Under the pieces are notes generated by a model. It did not search any database. It was not told the DNA's origin and saw nothing but the letters and a program-made list of their open reading frames with translations. Both the position numbers and the translations under genes were made by a program. Below, piece by piece: positions 32,403 through 40,697 of a stretch of DNA of 52,263 bases (positions are counted from its first letter, which is position 1; each line of letters opens with the position of its first letter). The DNA is from Candidatus Margulisiibacteriota bacterium (GTDB lineage: Bacteria > Margulisbacteria > Marinamargulisbacteria > SXXA01 > SICP01): NCBI GenBank assembly GCA_009691415.1, contig SICP01000009.1:1-52263 (forward strand). Reading direction: 5' to 3'.

Positions 32403-34961
32403 ATGATTGAATTACCAGCACGGTATGAACATGGTTCGATTGAAAAAAAATGGCAACAGGTTTGGGATGAGTCTGAAGTATATAAATGGGACTCGAGTGC
32501 CGATCGTGAGAATACGTTTTCGGTAGATACGCCGCCCCCGACTGTATCTGGATCGTTGCATGTGGGACACGTATTTAGTTATACGCAGACGGATGTGTTG
32601 GCGCGTTATCAACGCATGTGTGGAAAGTCTGTTTTTTATCCGATGGGTTGGGATGACAATGGGTTGCCGACAGAGCGTCGGGTGCAGAATGTGTTTGGTA
32701 TTACGTGCGATCCGACGTTGGCTTATGACGCGGCTTGGGCGCCTGAGAAGCGCGTGAAAGATGGCCCGCTGTTGCCGGTGTCTCGCCGTAATTTTATTGA
32801 TGCATGTCGGTTGTTGACGGCGGAAGATGAGCAGGCGTTTGAATCGATGTGGCGTCAGTTGGGATTGTCGGTGGATTGGTCGTTGCAGTATGCGACGATT
32901 GATCGGCATTGTCAGCGTGTAAGTCAGTATTCGTTTTTGGAAATGGCGAAGAAGGGTTATGTCTATCAAGTGGAATCTCCGACGATGTGGGATGTGGATT
33001 TTCGGACTGCTGTTGCACAGGCTGAAGTAGAAGATCGGCCACGTCCTGGCGCGTATCATCATGTGCAGTTTCTCGTGGAACACGGTGGTTCTTTTACGAT
33101 TGTGACGACGCGTCCAGAATTGTTGCCGGCGTGTATTGCGGTGGTGGCGCATCCGGATGATGCGAGATATAAAGACTTGTTTGGAAAATTTGCGATTACG
33201 CCGTTGTTTGGTGCACGTGTTCCGATTATGGCATCGACGCATGCAGATCCTGAGAAGGGTAGCGGGATTTTGATGGTATGTACGTTTGGAGATGCATCAG
33301 ACGTGGCGTGGTGGAAACAGCAGTCGTTGCCTATTAAGCAAGTGATTGGGGCCAATGGTCGACTAGTGCCCGTTGATTTTACGAAAGCACCGTTTGAGAG
33401 TGTAGACGCAGAAACGGCTGCCAAATGGTATGCGCCATTGGAAGGGCTTCGTGTAAAGCAAGCGCAGACAAAAATTGCAGAATTGTTGGTGGAATCTGGC
33501 GCGATGAGCCAGCCTTTGGAGATTATTGAGCATCCTGTTAAGTTTTATGAAAAGGGTGATTCTCCGCTGGAGTTTATGAAGACGCGTCAGTGGTTTGTAC
33601 GGATTTTGGAGCACAAAGAAGCGCTTGTGAAACAGGGCGATAAGATTGAATGGCATCCTAGTTTTATGAAGGCTCGATATCAGAATTGGGTAGAGGGATT
33701 AAACCAAGATTGGTGTATTAGTCGTCAGCGGTTTTTTGGGGTGTCGTTTCCTGTTTGGTACCCGATGGATGCGTTGGGAAATCCGGATTATGCGAAGCCA
33801 ATTTTTGCGCGTGAAGACCAGCTTCCCGTGGATCCGATGTCCGATGTTCCCGATGGATTTACGGAAGCGCAACGTGGGAAACCCAATGGATTTATGGGTG
33901 ACCCTGATGTGATGGACACGTGGGCGACGTCGTCGTTGACGCCTCAGATAGCGAGTCAGTGGCCGAATAATGATCGTCATGCCAAAATTTTCCCGATGGA
34001 TATTCGTCCGCAATCGCATGAAATTATTCGGACGTGGGCATTTTATACGATAACAAAAGCGTGGATGCATCATCAGGAAATTCCTTGGAAACATGTGGTG
34101 ATTAGTGGTTGGGTTTTGGATCCGGACCGCAAGAAAATGAGTAAGTCGAAAGGCAATGTAGTGACGCCAAATGCACTTTTAGATCAATATTCGTCGGATG
34201 CCGTGAGATATTGGGCGACTCGGGCGCGACTTGGTGTGGATACGGCGTTTGAAGAAACGATTTTTCAGATGGGCCAAAAGCTTGCGACGAAGTTGTTTAA
34301 TGCGAGTAAGTTTGTGATGTTGCAGTTGGGAGATGAAAAGCCTACTGCAGATCAGATTACGCAGCCGGTGGATGTGTCGTATTTGCAGAAAATAAAAGGG
34401 TTAGCTGATCGTGCAACAACATTGTTTAATGCGCTGGATTATGCTGGTGCCTTAGAGGCTGCGGAAGCCGCTTTTTGGACTTTTTGCGATCACTATATTG
34501 AGCTTGTAAAGATACGCGCGTATAGAGAAGAGGACGACGTAAAGCGTATGTCTGCACTAGCTACGTTGCAGGAAGCTTTGAAGACGTTTTTGTGTTTATT
34601 CGCACCGTTTTTGCCGTATGTAACGGAAGAGATTTGGTCGTGGCGATTTAGTAATGGAAAATCACTACATAAAACATCTTGGCCTACCTATTCTGACTAT
34701 GATGGAGGTTTTCATCCTACTTATTCTCTGGTTTTTGATTCTGCAATGATTGCCATGGCTAAGATTCGAGGCACTAAATCTGACCATAAGCAAAGTTTGA
34801 AATGTCCTGTAAAACGTCTGGTTATTCATAATAATGATCAAAAAATGTTGGATTATTATAAGTTTGCTAAATCTGATATTTGTTTTGCTGGAGTGGTGGC
34901 TCCGGAAGATTGTTTTTTTGAGCTCCGAGATGGAGAGCCGGGGATAGAAGTCGTTTTATGA
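32403..34961 (+). CDS. valS: Valyl-tRNA synthetase (archaeal/Rickettsia-like type)
   Basis: 852 residues from the ATG at 32403, which has GAGG 8 nt upstream; a TTG at 32385 is in frame but not needed. The class Ia motifs are HVGH (53-56) in SGSLHVGHVFSYTQTD and KMSKS (578-582). GWDDNGLPTERR and RRNFIDAC match the type found in archaea, Rickettsiales and some other lineages, rather than the usual bacterial GWDHAGIAT type, which also has a longer C-terminal coiled coil. The CP1 editing domain (TTRPELLPACIAVVAHP) is present. It overlaps the next gene by 4 nt. Confidence 0.95.
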   Translation: MIELPARYEHGSIEKKWQQVWDESEVYKWDSSADRENTFSVDTPPPTVSGSLHVGHVFSYTQTDVLARYQRMCGKSVFYPMGWDDNGLPTERRVQNVFGITCDPTLAYDAAWAPEKRVKDGPLLPVSRRNFIDACRLLTAEDEQAFESMWRQLGLSVDWSLQYATIDRHCQRVSQYSFLEMAKKGYVYQVESPTMWDVDFRTAVAQAEVEDRPRPGAYHHVQFLVEHGGSFTIVTTRPELLPACIAVVAHPDDARYKDLFGKFAITPLFGARVPIMASTHADPEKGSGILMVCTFGDASDVAWWKQQSLPIKQVIGANGRLVPVDFTKAPFESVDAETAAKWYAPLEGLRVKQAQTKIAELLVESGAMSQPLEIIEHPVKFYEKGDSPLEFMKTRQWFVRILEHKEALVKQGDKIEWHPSFMKARYQNWVEGLNQDWCISRQRFFGVSFPVWYPMDALGNPDYAKPIFAREDQLPVDPMSDVPDGFTEAQRGKPNGFMGDPDVMDTWATSSLTPQIASQWPNNDRHAKIFPMDIRPQSHEIIRTWAFYTITKAWMHHQEIPWKHVVISGWVLDPDRKKMSKSKGNVVTPNALLDQYSSDAVRYWATRARLGVDTAFEETIFQMGQKLATKLFNASKFVMLQLGDEKPTADQITQPVDVSYLQKIKGLADRATTLFNALDYAGALEAAEAAFWTFCDHYIELVKIRAYREEDDVKRMSALATLQEALKTFLCLFAPFLPYVTEEIWSWRFSNGKSLHKTSWPTYSDYDGGFHPTYSLVFDSAMIAMAKIRGTKSDHKQSLKCPVKRLVIHNNDQKMLDYYKFAKSDICFAGVVAPEDCFFELRDGEPGIEVVL

Positions 34962-35494
34962 GCAAAGAAATTTTCCTTTCTCAAGATGTGATAGAGGCGA
35001 AGATTTATGTTTTTCGTGGCATGAAGGTGATGCTGGATAGAGATCTGGCGGTTATGTATGGTGTTGAAACGCGCTCTCTTAATCAGGCTGTGAAACGGGC
35101 GATTGATCGATTTCCTTTAGATTTTATGTTTCAACTTACCTTACAAGAATTTGAAGATTGGAAATCACAAATTGTGATATCCAATTCTGAGAAAATGGGA
35201 TTGAGGAAATTGCCGTATGTGTTTACCGAGCAGGGTGTCGCGATGCTATCAAGTGTTTTACGGAGCCCTCGTGCTATTGCTGTAAATGTACAGATCATGC
35301 GGATTTTCGTGCAAATGAGACGTGCTTCTTTAACTAATCATGAGATTTTGTTGAAGTTACAGTTTATTGAGAAACAGCTTTTGGTGCATGATGTTAAACA
35401 TCGTCAAAATGATCAACAGTTTCAGGTTGTTTTCGAAGCTATTAAGCATATGTTTCAATCGGAAATAAAAGAAAAAAAGATAGGGTTTTTGTAA
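34958..35494 (+). CDS. ORF6N-domain protein
   Basis: 178 residues with an N-terminal ORF6N domain (about 8-100): VFRGMKVMLDRDLAVMYGVETR, here split as IYVFRGMKVMLDRDLAVMYG followed by VETRSLNQAVKR, and later LPYVFTEQGVAMLSSVLRS. A helical C-terminus (LKLQFIEKQLLVHDVKHRQ) may be a coiled coil. ORF6N domains are DNA-binding modules of phage antirepressors and chromosomal accessory genes. Its ATG overlaps the valS stop (ATGA), so it is translated with valS, an odd partnership. Confidence 0.88.
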   Translation: MSKEIFLSQDVIEAKIYVFRGMKVMLDRDLAVMYGVETRSLNQAVKRAIDRFPLDFMFQLTLQEFEDWKSQIVISNSEKMGLRKLPYVFTEQGVAMLSSVLRSPRAIAVNVQIMRIFVQMRRASLTNHEILLKLQFIEKQLLVHDVKHRQNDQQFQVVFEAIKHMFQSEIKEKKIGFL

Positions 35495-36256: not shown

Positions 36257-37330
36257 ATGGCTGAATTCATTTTATTAAATTTGCCTCCACAGGTTAATTT
36301 TGAAAGTCCTTTAATTTTGAAATCTTTGGCTTCTGCACATCGATATTTGGCGGAATTAAAGGGCTTGTCTCATGTTATGCCCAATCAGGGTATTTTGATA
36401 AATTCTCTAATTTTGCAAGAGGCGAAGGATAGTTCTGCAATTGAAAATATTGTGACGACTTACGACATGCTTTATCAGGCAGAAATTTTTCCAGAGGGTT
36501 CCTTAAATGCATCTGCTAAGGAGGTGCGGGATTATGCGTCAGCTTTGCGGGTTGGTTATGATCTGGTTAATGGGCATAATATTTTGTCTAATAATCATAT
36601 TCTAACGATTCAGCAAGAATTGGAAAAAAACAATGCTGGATTTCGTAGGTTGCCAGGTACAGAAATTAAAAATAGGCAAACGGATGAAGTTGTTTATACG
36701 CCTCCCCAAGAATTTGATCGGATTCAGAATTTTATGTCGAATTTAGAAGCTTATATTAATGATGATGCTATTCATGATGTTGATCCTTTAATTAAAATGG
36801 CGATTATACATTTTCAATTTGAGAGTATTCATCCTTTTTATGATGGCAATGGTCGAACTGGTCGTATCATTAATGTTCTTTATCTTGTACTTAAAAATCT
36901 TTTGGATATTCCAATTCTGTATTTGAGTCATTTTATTATTCATAATAGAGCAGATTATTATCGATTATTACAAGCTGTTCGAGATGATAATGATTGGGAG
37001 GCATGGGTTTTATTTATGGTGCGTGCTGTTGAGGAAACTTCGAAGCGTACTATTCAAACAGTTAAACAAATTAGAGCTTGTTTTCTGGATTATAAGTCTC
37101 GGATTCGAGGTAATTATCGGTTTTATAGTCAAGATTTGATTAATGTTCTTTTTACACATCCATATACAATGGTTTCTTATCTAGAAAAGAGCTTAAATAT
37201 TAGTCGGCCAACTGCCACAAAATATTTAGAAACCTTGGTTTCTGGCGGTTTTTTGGAAAAAAAGACGGTAGGGAGGGCTAACTATTATATTAACCATGCC
37301 TTATTTAGTATTTTGGTTATTAACGATTAA
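36257..37330 (+). CDS. Fic family AMP-transferase with C-terminal winged helix
   Basis: 357 residues. An N-terminal Fic_N region carries the inhibitory-helix motif S-x-x-x-E-N (Ser59 to Asn64, in SSAIENIVTTYDM). The Fic core has the complete catalytic motif HPFYDGNGRTGR (192-203), with His192 as base, so it should be able to transfer AMP from ATP to a protein hydroxyl. The C-terminal about 70 residues (TMVSYLEKSLNISRPTATKYL, here only the part LNISRPTATKYLETL is the recognition helix) form a winged helix. An internally inhibited, DNA-binding Fic is the class II architecture, so no separate antitoxin is needed. It converges on the aldolase gene with 3 bp between stops. Confidence 0.93.
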   Translation: MAEFILLNLPPQVNFESPLILKSLASAHRYLAELKGLSHVMPNQGILINSLILQEAKDSSAIENIVTTYDMLYQAEIFPEGSLNASAKEVRDYASALRVGYDLVNGHNILSNNHILTIQQELEKNNAGFRRLPGTEIKNRQTDEVVYTPPQEFDRIQNFMSNLEAYINDDAIHDVDPLIKMAIIHFQFESIHPFYDGNGRTGRIINVLYLVLKNLLDIPILYLSHFIIHNRADYYRLLQAVRDDNDWEAWVLFMVRAVEETSKRTIQTVKQIRACFLDYKSRIRGNYRFYSQDLINVLFTHPYTMVSYLEKSLNISRPTATKYLETLVSGGFLEKKTVGRANYYINHALFSILVIND

Positions 37331-38006: not shown

Positions 38007-38354
38007 TTATTCGAGTTTGCCGTGTTTGGCTTCCATGGCTTCTAGGTTTACTTGGCCATGGGCGTTGATTTCCCAATCATATCCGTAGACATCTTTTGTG
38101 GGAACCCCTTGTGGAAAATAATCTTCAAAATGGGTGGACCAGGTAGATAAATTTCCGCTTGGAATGGGATAGGTGTTGTTTTGGAAATGATAGAGTTCGA
38201 GTTGGGCATTAATGAATTGCCGTTGGGATTTATGGTTTTTTTGCTTGCTTTCGGTGGCGGCAGAGGCCATTTTTGGGACGATGATCAGGGCCAATATTCC
38301 GATGACGCTGAGTACGATACAGAGTTCAACGAGTGTAAAGTTTTTTTTAGTCAT
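38007..38354 (-). CDS. Type IV pilin-like / pseudopilin with Asn at position -1
   Basis: 115 residues with a class III signal: MTKKN then FTLVELCIVLSVIGILALIIV, giving the conserved Phe1 and Glu5 and the hydrophobic alpha1 helix. The residue before Phe1 is Asn (codon AAC) where prepilin peptidase normally requires Gly or, rarely, Ala. The C-terminal part (YGYDWEINAHGQ) resembles GspG-like pseudopilins. Its ATG overlaps the lpxB stop by 4 nt and has AAAGGAG as ribosome site. No other pilus or secretion gene is nearby. Confidence 0.85.
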   Translation of the reverse strand: MTKKNFTLVELCIVLSVIGILALIIVPKMASAATESKQKNHKSQRQFINAQLELYHFQNNTYPIPSGNLSTWSTHFEDYFPQGVPTKDVYGYDWEINAHGQVNLEAMEAKHGKLE

Positions 38355-39454
38355 GAGGGCTCCTTTAAAAGTGCCGTGGCAATGCTTTGAAAGGGGTTGG
38401 GATCTTTGGTGAATTTTTTGAGGATTTCTGGGTAGTGATCCAGCATTTTATGGTCTAGTTTTGTTATGGTTTCGGCAATTTTTGTTGGATCAAAATTTTG
38501 TATAAATTCTGGGATGATGGTTTGGTTCATGACGATGTTAGGTAGTGCGATTCGGGGGAGTTTTACTTTCAGAATGTGTGTTCCAAGCCAGAAAGTGATA
38601 GGAGAGACGGCACCTAAAACGATCATGGGCGTGTAGGTAAGTAGTGCTTCGAGCGTGACTGTTCCCGCGACGCAGAGGAGGAGCCTGGTGTTTGCAAGAA
38701 GATCGGGAGAGGTGGCGTCTTTAAATTGTATATTTTGGATGGGATATTTTTTGAGGTAGTGATCAATTAATTTTTTTATGGTGGGATTCATGACGGCTAT
38801 TTGAATGGGAGACGTAGTAGGGTTCTTTTGTAGAATTTGTATGGCTTTAAGCATGGCTGGAAAATGATAGTGAATTTCTTGGTCTCGGGAGCCTGGGAAT
38901 AGTGTGAGTATATGTCTATGTTTCGTTTGTTCTGGATTGGTCATGGGTGGGCGAATGGATAGTAGCGGATGTCCGAAATAATAGACTCTGGGATGAAGTG
39001 GGCGATAGAGCTCGTATTCTTGCTCAAAAATAGTGAAAATGGTGTGGCTGTATTTGGCGATTTTTTGGGCGCTTCGGGTGTCTTTCCAAATCCAAAAATT
39101 GGGACTGATAAACGTGTAGATTGGGATGTTGTATTTTTGGAGAATAGTAGCGATTTGGAAATTGGCGTGTTGAAAATCAATTAAGATGGCTTTGTTGATC
39201 GGGGTGGTTTCGAGATAGGCTTCGAGTGCTTGTAAGAAAATTTTGGTTTGGCGTCTTTTTTTCCAGTGTTCCCAATTTCCCATAGCGTGTGAGTAGGCAC
39301 TTTCGTAGACGAAGTAATCTGTTTGGGCTTTGAGTTGGGTGCCTCCTATTCCGTGAAGACTTATTTTGGGGTCTTTGTTTTTTAGGGTTTCGGCAAGTTT
39401 GCTGGCGTATTGGTCGCCCGATACTTCTCCGGCGATAATCAGTATGTTTTGCAT
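38351..39454 (-). CDS. lpxB: Lipid-A-disaccharide synthase
   Basis: A 367-residue GT19 glycosyltransferase that joins UDP-2,3-diacylglucosamine and lipid X to make the lipid A disaccharide. The N-terminal IIAGEVSGDQYASKL motif is diagnostic, HGIGGTQLKAQ and FISPNFWIWKDTR replace the common SPSVWAW-type stretch, and TLFPGSRDQEIHYHFPAML is the second-domain glycine motif. It follows fabZ-lpxA with 1 nt between stop and start. lpxC, lpxD and lpxH or lpxI are not in the window. Confidence 0.94.
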   Translation of the reverse strand: MQNILIIAGEVSGDQYASKLAETLKNKDPKISLHGIGGTQLKAQTDYFVYESAYSHAMGNWEHWKKRRQTKIFLQALEAYLETTPINKAILIDFQHANFQIATILQKYNIPIYTFISPNFWIWKDTRSAQKIAKYSHTIFTIFEQEYELYRPLHPRVYYFGHPLLSIRPPMTNPEQTKHRHILTLFPGSRDQEIHYHFPAMLKAIQILQKNPTTSPIQIAVMNPTIKKLIDHYLKKYPIQNIQFKDATSPDLLANTRLLLCVAGTVTLEALLTYTPMIVLGAVSPITFWLGTHILKVKLPRIALPNIVMNQTIIPEFIQNFDPTKIAETITKLDHKMLDHYPEILKKFTKDPNPFQSIATALLKEPS

Positions 39455-39455
39455 C

Positions 39456-40697
39456 TTAATCGGTGAGCGTTTCTGTATCGGCGGCTTCTTTTTTGAGGGT
39501 TAGGCCACGGGGAGAATCGGCTAAGCAAAAATCAATTAAATGTTTGGCATTTTCAGAGATGGGGGTGAGTGCCTGAATGTCTTTTTTGGCTTCTGAAAAT
39601 ACTTTGCTGGATCGAAAAATAGTTCGGAAAATGTGTTTAATTTCGGTGATTTCGCTAGCAGAAGATCCACTGCGTTTGAGGCCGATGGCGTTGATATTTC
39701 GGGTCACGGCGGGATTGCCTTCGCATAATGTAAACGGGGCAATGTCTTGTGTAATGCGGGAGTATCCACCGACCATGGCGCCTTTGCCAATCCGTGTGAA
39801 TTGATGGACGCCTGTCATGCCTCCGATAATTGCTCGGTCTTCAATCGTACAATGACCTGCGAAATTACAGGTGTTGGCAATAATAATATTATTTCCCAAA
39901 ATACAATTATGCCCGACATGTACACTGGTCATCAAAATGTTGTCGGATCCAATAATAGTGGCTGTGTCTTTGCCTGTGGATCGGTTAATAGTGACGTATT
40001 CGCGAATGTCATTGCGATCGCCAATAATGACGGAGGTGCGTTCGCCTTTGTATTTTAAATCTTGTGCGTTGGAGCCAATGACCGTGCCAAAATGAATATG
40101 GCAGTCTTCTCCGATTTGGGTATCTCGCTCGATCAAAATATTGGCTTCTAAAACGGTTCGATCTCCGATGATCACGTTTTCTCCAATCATGGTGTATGGG
40201 CCGACGACCACGTCTTTTCCGAGACTCGCAGATGCGTGAACAGAGGCCGTGGGGTGTATGTGTGGGCGGGACGCTTTACTGGTCATCGCGTAGATGAAGG
40301 TGCATTCTGCGATGACTTTTCCGTCTACCAATGCCTTGGCTTCTACGGTGATTTCATTGAGCTTGAGTTTGGTGACATCGGTTTCGACTCTCAGCTGATC
40401 ACCGGCATAGGCTGATTTTTTGAAGTGTACATTTTTGAGTTCGTCGTAGAGAGGGAGCTGGGTAGAAAATTCGGGGTCTTTTGAAAAAATCGCGGCTGCT
40501 GTTTGTGCCATGGCTTCGATGATCATACTTGCTGGCATGATGGGATGTTGGGGGAAATGGCCTTGCATCCAAGGGTCCATGAGGGAAATATTTTTGATGC
40601 CTACGGCGCGTTTACGATTTTCCCATTCGATGAGTGCGTCGAGAAGTAAAAAGGGATATCGGTGTGGGATAAAATCGGTAATTAATAAATTCTGCAT
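39456..40697 (-). CDS. FabZ-LpxA fusion: hydroxyacyl-ACP dehydratase and UDP-GlcNAc acyltransferase
   Basis: 413 residues in one open frame. Residues 1-140 are a FabZ hot-dog domain: PHRYPFLLLD, catalytic His47 in GHFPQHP, and Glu61 in IIEAMAQ, with PA in place of the usual PG. Residues about 144-413 are LpxA: left-handed beta-helix hexapeptides (VVVGPYTMIGENVIIG, ASVHASASLGKDV), catalytic His263 in HVGHNCILGN, and the C-terminal NAIGLKRSGSSASEI helix region. FabZ dehydrates 3-hydroxyacyl-ACP, the same substrate LpxA transfers to UDP-GlcNAc, so the fusion joins the branch point of fatty acid and lipid A synthesis. The ATG at 40697 follows an extended -10. Confidence 0.94.
   Translation of the reverse strand: MQNLLITDFIPHRYPFLLLDALIEWENRKRAVGIKNISLMDPWMQGHFPQHPIMPASMIIEAMAQTAAAIFSKDPEFSTQLPLYDELKNVHFKKSAYAGDQLRVETDVTKLKLNEITVEAKALVDGKVIAECTFIYAMTSKASRPHIHPTASVHASASLGKDVVVGPYTMIGENVIIGDRTVLEANILIERDTQIGEDCHIHFGTVIGSNAQDLKYKGERTSVIIGDRNDIREYVTINRSTGKDTATIIGSDNILMTSVHVGHNCILGNNIIIANTCNFAGHCTIEDRAIIGGMTGVHQFTRIGKGAMVGGYSRITQDIAPFTLCEGNPAVTRNINAIGLKRSGSSASEITEIKHIFRTIFRSSKVFSEAKKDIQALTPISENAKHLIDFCLADSPRGLTLKKEAADTETLTD

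What the first reader, a model, noticed from the sequence alone, without database searches (positions are those of the whole stretch)
39456..40697. Natural fusion of FabZ to LpxA
The two enzymes compete for 3-hydroxyacyl-ACP. Joining them could set the split between fatty acid elongation and lipid A. LpxC-FabZ fusions are known in Bacteroidetes; a FabZ-LpxA fusion is, as far as I know, unusual. Both catalytic centres look intact (His47/Glu61 and His263). LpxA is a trimer and FabZ a hexamer of dimers, so the combined assembly is geometrically interesting.
Basis: partly seen in the sequence, partly recalled or inferred. Interest (0 to 1): 0.6.

Follow-up and report, generated by a model that had tools for sequence, protein, structure and literature searches.

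The report
FabZ–LpxA fusion shared across a phylum
In one little-studied bacterial phylum, two enzymes that compete for the same fatty-acid building block are permanently joined in one protein, and in some relatives the first half seems to have lost its catalytic ability yet is still preserved, so the link may serve more than joint catalysis.

Summary
One minus-strand ORF (40697→39456, 413 aa) joins a complete FabZ domain to a complete LpxA domain, with about 8–13 residues between them and all quoted catalytic residues present. It is not a missed stop. An independent lake MAG (95% protein, 87.5% DNA identity) has the same unbroken ORF, and of 66 phylum genomes with lpxA, 58 are fused, 7 (one family) are separate and 1 is broken by contig ends. 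None of about 404 genomes sampled outside the phylum is fused; the fusion needs a single change on the LpxA tree.

The unexpected part concerns the FabZ half. In five families of the window's class it has lost the catalytic His and the near-invariant Gly (at least four losses), while LpxA's catalytic His is kept in all 57 aligned fusions. In the one lost pair that could be measured, the FabZ half is still under purifying selection (dN/dS 0.045). All these genomes, and the window's, carry a tandem FabZ–FabZ protein with one predicted composite active site. The window's FabZ half keeps His and Glu, with the Gly changed to Ala. I judge it a probably active bifunctional enzyme whose FabZ half also has an architectural role.

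The parts
39456..40697 (-). fused fabZ-lpxA gene, 413 aa, stop codon included
   Evidence: unbroken in L004/G017 and 58 phylum genomes
40287..40685 (-). FabZ (hotdog dehydratase) domain, residues 5-137
   Evidence: NF000582 134.8 bits over cut-off 113; PF07977
40557..40559 (-). FabZ catalytic His47 (E. coli H54)
   Evidence: alignment
40530..40532 (-). Ala56 in place of the near-invariant Gly (E. coli G63)
   Evidence: PMC9842644 finds only Ala or Gly tolerated at G63
40515..40517 (-). FabZ catalytic Glu61 (E. coli E68)
   Evidence: alignment
40263..40286 (-). short junction between the domains, residues 138-145
   Evidence: stretch between residue 137 and P148 is 9-13 residues in all 57 aligned fusions
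39492..40268 (-). LpxA (UDP-GlcNAc 3-O-acyltransferase) domain, residues 144-402, with C-terminal helical domain
   Evidence: TIGR01852 305.7 bits, PF13720; PDB LpxA matches down to 6.7e-64
39909..39911 (-). LpxA catalytic His263 (E. coli H125)
   Evidence: conserved in 57 of 57 fusions
38351..39454 (-). lpxB, start codon one base after the fusion's stop (TAA-G-ATG), probably one operon
   Evidence: PF02684 9e-61; sequence
38007..38354 (-). pseudopilin-like gene overlapping the end of lpxB; order kept in L004 and L005

Best explanation
A bifunctional enzyme fusing FabZ (3-hydroxyacyl-ACP dehydratase) to LpxA (first acyltransferase of lipid A). It arose once within this phylum by loss of the stop between the neighbouring genes fabZ and lpxA. 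In the window's organism both halves are predicted active, so the two competitors for 3-hydroxyacyl-ACP are made in a fixed 1:1 ratio and held together, with lpxB translated right behind. The FabZ half also has an architectural role for LpxA (holding the oligomer, or docking ACP), which is why relatives that lost its chemistry keep the domain. Shown: the fusion, its distribution, the residues, the selection on one dead FabZ half. Inferred: both activities, the effect on flux, the architectural role.
For: Both domains are complete and pass curated cut-offs (NF000582, TIGR01852). His47/Glu61 and His263 are present; Ala56 is the one substitution E. coli FabZ tolerates at G63 (PMC9842644). Fusion in 58 of 66 phylum genomes with lpxA, one change on the LpxA tree, junction length nearly constant. 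Both halves under purifying selection in the window's genus: dN/dS 0.039 and 0.034. FabF and LpxC are present in the genome, so both pathways exist. The catalytically lost FabZ half in G012/G013 is still constrained, dN/dS 0.045 (95% CI 0.019-0.087).
Against: The FabZ half scores lower (137 bits) than in sister families (up to about 208 bits) and has lost Gly63; G016 of the same family has Asn there, which E. coli does not tolerate (PMC9842644). The genome has another dehydratase candidate, the tandem protein, so the fused FabZ may be dispensable. No activity, flux or oligomer data; the structure model is poor (pLDDT 52.7, three sequences).
Confidence: 0.55

Rival explanations
1. The FabZ half is already catalytically idle or nearly so in the window's lineage, and is kept purely as a structural or ACP-docking part of LpxA. 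Fatty-acid dehydration is done by the tandem FabZ-FabZ protein, whose N-half supplies Glu and whose C-half supplies His and Gly.
For: Seven fusions in five families have lost His54 together with Gly63, at least four separate losses, with LpxA H125 kept in 57 of 57. All these genomes have the tandem protein; families without it keep the motif. All 23 tandem proteins examined keep Glu in the N-half and GHFP in the C-half. The window's genome has the tandem protein, and the FabA/FabZ family models find only the fusion besides. Ala56/Asn56 in family f1.
Against: His47, Glu61, P55 and Q65 are all kept in the window, and Ala at G63 is tolerated in E. coli (PMC9842644). The tandem-loss association rests on few independent events and is not significant once the tree is taken into account (sign test median p 0.5).
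Confidence: 0.33
2. Substrate channelling: the fusion passes 3-hydroxyacyl-ACP between the two active sites.
For: Both halves use the same ACP-bound substrate and are joined by a short stretch of about 10 residues.
Against: The enzymes compete for the substrate rather than act in series: FabZ removes the hydroxyl that LpxA needs (general knowledge of the two reactions). Channelling cannot explain retention of dead FabZ halves.
Confidence: 0.06
3. The fusion has no function of its own: a neutral loss of a stop between adjacent genes, then fixed.
For: fabZ and lpxA are adjacent in many bacteria and can be in the same frame with one stop between, as in G038 (TAG) and G333 (TAA).
Against: The fusion is kept across nearly a whole phylum, and dead FabZ halves are neither deleted nor, where measured, free of constraint.
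Confidence: 0.05
4. Sequencing or assembly error removed a stop.
For: None found.
Against: Independent MAG L004 with 12.5% DNA divergence has the same open frame, as do 58 genomes.
Confidence: 0.01

Closest known systems
LpxC/FabZ bifunctional protein (NF009667/PRK13188) of Bacteroidetes, Chlorobi and Verrucomicrobia
   Same: FabZ fused to a neighbouring early lipid A enzyme from the same gene cluster (PMC516016, PMC3087551).
   Different: Here FabZ is N-terminal and the partner is LpxA, not LpxC; LpxC is a separate gene in this genome.
Separate, adjacent fabZ and lpxA genes (common in Gram-negative bacteria; cyanobacterial order lpxD-lpxC-fabZ-lpxA-lpxB)
   Same: Same genes, same order, often followed by lpxB (PMC3087551).
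   Different: Two proteins with a stop between them; here one polypeptide.
E. coli FabZ and LpxA
   Same: Catalytic residues H54/E68 and H125 conserved; LpxA C-terminal domain present.
   Different: Fused; Gly63 replaced by Ala in the window's FabZ half.

Membership tests
FabZ | Passes a curated FabZ model | tested here: inconclusive
   NF000582 134.8 bits over cut-off 113; TIGR01750 125.6 bits, under cut-off 155.15
FabZ | Catalytic His and Glu (E. coli H54, E68) | tested here: met
   H47, E61
FabZ | Gly at E. coli position 63 (backbone NH to substrate carbonyl) | tested here: not met
   Ala56; E. coli tolerates Ala there (PMC9842644)
FabZ | Dehydratase activity; hexamer as trimer of dimers | not testable with these tools
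   needs purified protein
LpxA | Passes curated LpxA models | tested here: met
   TIGR01852 305.7 over 231.05; NF003657 334.8 over 226
LpxA | Left-handed beta-helix repeats plus C-terminal helical domain | tested here: met
   PF00132 six stretches, PF13720 residues 318-399
LpxA | Catalytic His (E. coli H125) | tested here: met
   H263; conserved in 57 of 57 fusions
LpxA | Acyltransferase activity; trimer | not testable with these tools
   needs purified protein
LpxC/FabZ bifunctional protein | LpxC domain fused N-terminal to FabZ | tested here: not met
   NF009667 113.9 bits, cut-off 465, FabZ part only; LpxC is at G000:C24

The most novel reading that the evidence does not exclude
In part of this phylum the FabZ half of the fusion has become a conserved pseudoenzyme: it no longer dehydrates, but is retained as an oligomerising or ACP-docking subunit of LpxA, after dehydration was handed to a tandem FabZ-FabZ protein with a single composite active site.
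Probability: 0.45. Interest if true: 0.68.

Novelty: new variant of a known kind. Interest (0 to 1): 0.5.

Why it matters
FabZ and LpxA sit at the branch between phospholipid and lipid A synthesis, and E. coli fabZ mutations rebalance lipid A defects (cited in PMC12152623). A phylum that fixes their ratio in one protein, and relatives that keep the FabZ half after losing its chemistry, give a natural test of whether the dehydratase matters to LpxA as an enzyme or as a physical partner. I found no description of a FabZ–LpxA fusion in the searches made; those covered open-licence papers only, and not every hit was read in full.

Tried and rejected
Sequencing error or missed stop: rejected. FabZ half as the only dehydratase candidate: rejected, since a tandem FabZ-FabZ protein exists in the same genome, although the FabZ and FabA family models find only the fusion. 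The tandem-protein/FabZ-loss association looks strong by family (5 of 11 against 0 of 14; 0.0087), but not within the window's class alone (0.196) or by independent pairs on the tree. The FabZ tree alone does not show a single origin but does not reject one (p-AU 0.605). The GTDB phylum name could not be recovered; the nearest named record is bacterium UBP8_UBA817.

Full report
Observation. The finding's coordinates are exact; the gene is on the minus strand. It reads as one frame of 413 codons from ATG 40697 to TAA 39456-39458. Residues 5-137 are FabZ and 144-402 are LpxA by NCBIfam; Pfam agrees and adds the LpxA C-terminal domain. PDB sequence matches split the same way: LpxA structures from residue about 146, FabZ structures over 6-139. 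His47, Glu61 and His263 align with E. coli FabZ H54 and E68 and LpxA H125. lpxB starts one base after the stop.

Not an error. A separate MAG (L004, bacterium UBP8_UBA817; a lake origin is inferred from its isolate name) carries the same open frame at 95% protein and 87.5% DNA identity. L005, labelled Rickettsiales bacterium MED721, also has it, with the same neighbours: divergent epimerase, lpxB, pseudopilin. Its sequence is the one held as G008 of the window's own class, so the Rickettsiales label is probably wrong.

Distribution. In the window's phylum (74 genomes held) 66 have lpxA: 58 fused (57 across both domains, G024 cut by a contig end), 7 separate, all in family f21, and G020 split over contig ends. 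Outside, 309 genomes from over 200 families and about 95 more from one other phylum gave no unbroken fusion; where both domains matched in a row there was at least one stop. These are samples, and very divergent fusions could fall below the listed matches. On the LpxA tree f21 is sister to all fused proteins (90/78) and fusion needs one change. In G038 (f21) fabZ ends in TAG and lpxA starts in the same frame a few codons on, which is how the state before fusion could have looked. Whether f21 is ancestral or a later split is not settled.

Junction. The stretch from the end of FabZ to LpxA's first repeat is 9-13 residues in all 57 aligned fusions, so the two folds are held close.

Decay of the FabZ half. 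His54 (E. coli numbering) is kept in 50 of 57 fusions and lost in seven: G015 (f2), G009 (f9), G012 and G013 (f12), G022 (f15), G024 and G025 (f17). Gly63 is lost in the same seven. P62 and Q72 are kept in all 57 and E68 in 55 (Asp in f17). LpxA H122 and H125 are kept in all 57. The tree needs at least four changes for the losses. In E. coli, G63 is the FabZ residue least tolerant of change (only Ala or Gly), whereas H54 tolerates Gln, Val and Tyr in that screen (PMC9842644), so the Gly loss is the stronger sign of inactivity. G009, G015 and G022 are single genomes; f12 and f17 each have two. Between G012 and G013 the dead FabZ half has dN/dS 0.045 (95% CI 0.019-0.087), close to LpxA's 0.030. 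In f17 the FabZ half diverges faster (40% against 77% identity), so constraint is not equal everywhere.

The window's own FabZ half. His47 and Glu61 are kept and Gly63 is Ala, the tolerated change; G016 of the same family has Asn. dN/dS with its sister species is 0.039, LpxA 0.034. It scores 137 bits against up to about 208 in sister families. I read it as probably active but on the edge.

Tandem FabZ-FabZ protein. The window's genome carries at G000:C30:29050-30006 a protein of about 320 residues with two FabZ-like halves. In all 23 family members examined the N-half keeps the Glu but not the His, and the C-half keeps GHFP and the Gly but not the Glu, so together they could form one complete active site; fused double-hotdog proteins are a known type (PMC2698920). 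It occurs in most of the window's class and in f20, and nowhere else in 152 genomes at E 1e-10. Every genome with a lost FabZ active site has it, but the association is not significant once the tree is considered.

Mechanism. FabZ and LpxA compete for 3-hydroxyacyl-ACP (PMC3087551), so channelling in series makes little sense. A fixed ratio and shared location do, and an architectural role would explain why dead halves stay. FabZ hexamers use active-site loops at the dimer-dimer contacts (PMC2698920), so lineages without that loop may have lost the hexamer as well; this is inference. A six-chain assembly, with an LpxA trimer on each face of a FabZ trimer of dimers, fits the symmetry but was not modelled.

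Noticed in passing
G000:C30:29050-30006 (L099); relatives L096-L118: Tandem FabZ-FabZ protein of about 320 aa with one predicted composite active site (Glu in N-half, His and Gly in C-half). In the two relatives whose flanks were read on both sides (L056, L057) it lies between a sigma-factor-like gene and a ruvC-like gene.
   Followed up: partly
L005 (NZFK01000024.1): Record labelled Rickettsiales bacterium MED721 is the same sequence as G008 of the window's class; the label is probably wrong.
   Followed up: partly
L036 (G038): fabZ and lpxA separate but in one frame, a TAG and a few codons apart; looks like the state before fusion.
   Followed up: partly
L058, L059, L060, L061 (G009, G028, G032, G024): Extra standalone FabZ genes of about 160 aa beside the fusion in some families (f9, f17, f18, f19).
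   Followed up: no
LpxA half, E. coli G173 column: Gly in 15 fusions including the window's, Ala in 40, Ser in G016. If this column acts as the acyl-chain ruler (from own knowledge), chain length may differ across the phylum.
   Followed up: no
G011 (90% complete) and seven other genomes, mostly less complete: No fabZ-lpxA or lpxA match although G011 has LpxC and the tandem protein; possibly missing contigs.
   Followed up: no
window 34958-35494 (+): ORF6N-domain gene (PF10543) directly after a class I tRNA synthetase gene.
   Followed up: no
window 36257-37330 (+): Fic-family protein with SoFic-like C-terminal domain.
   Followed up: no
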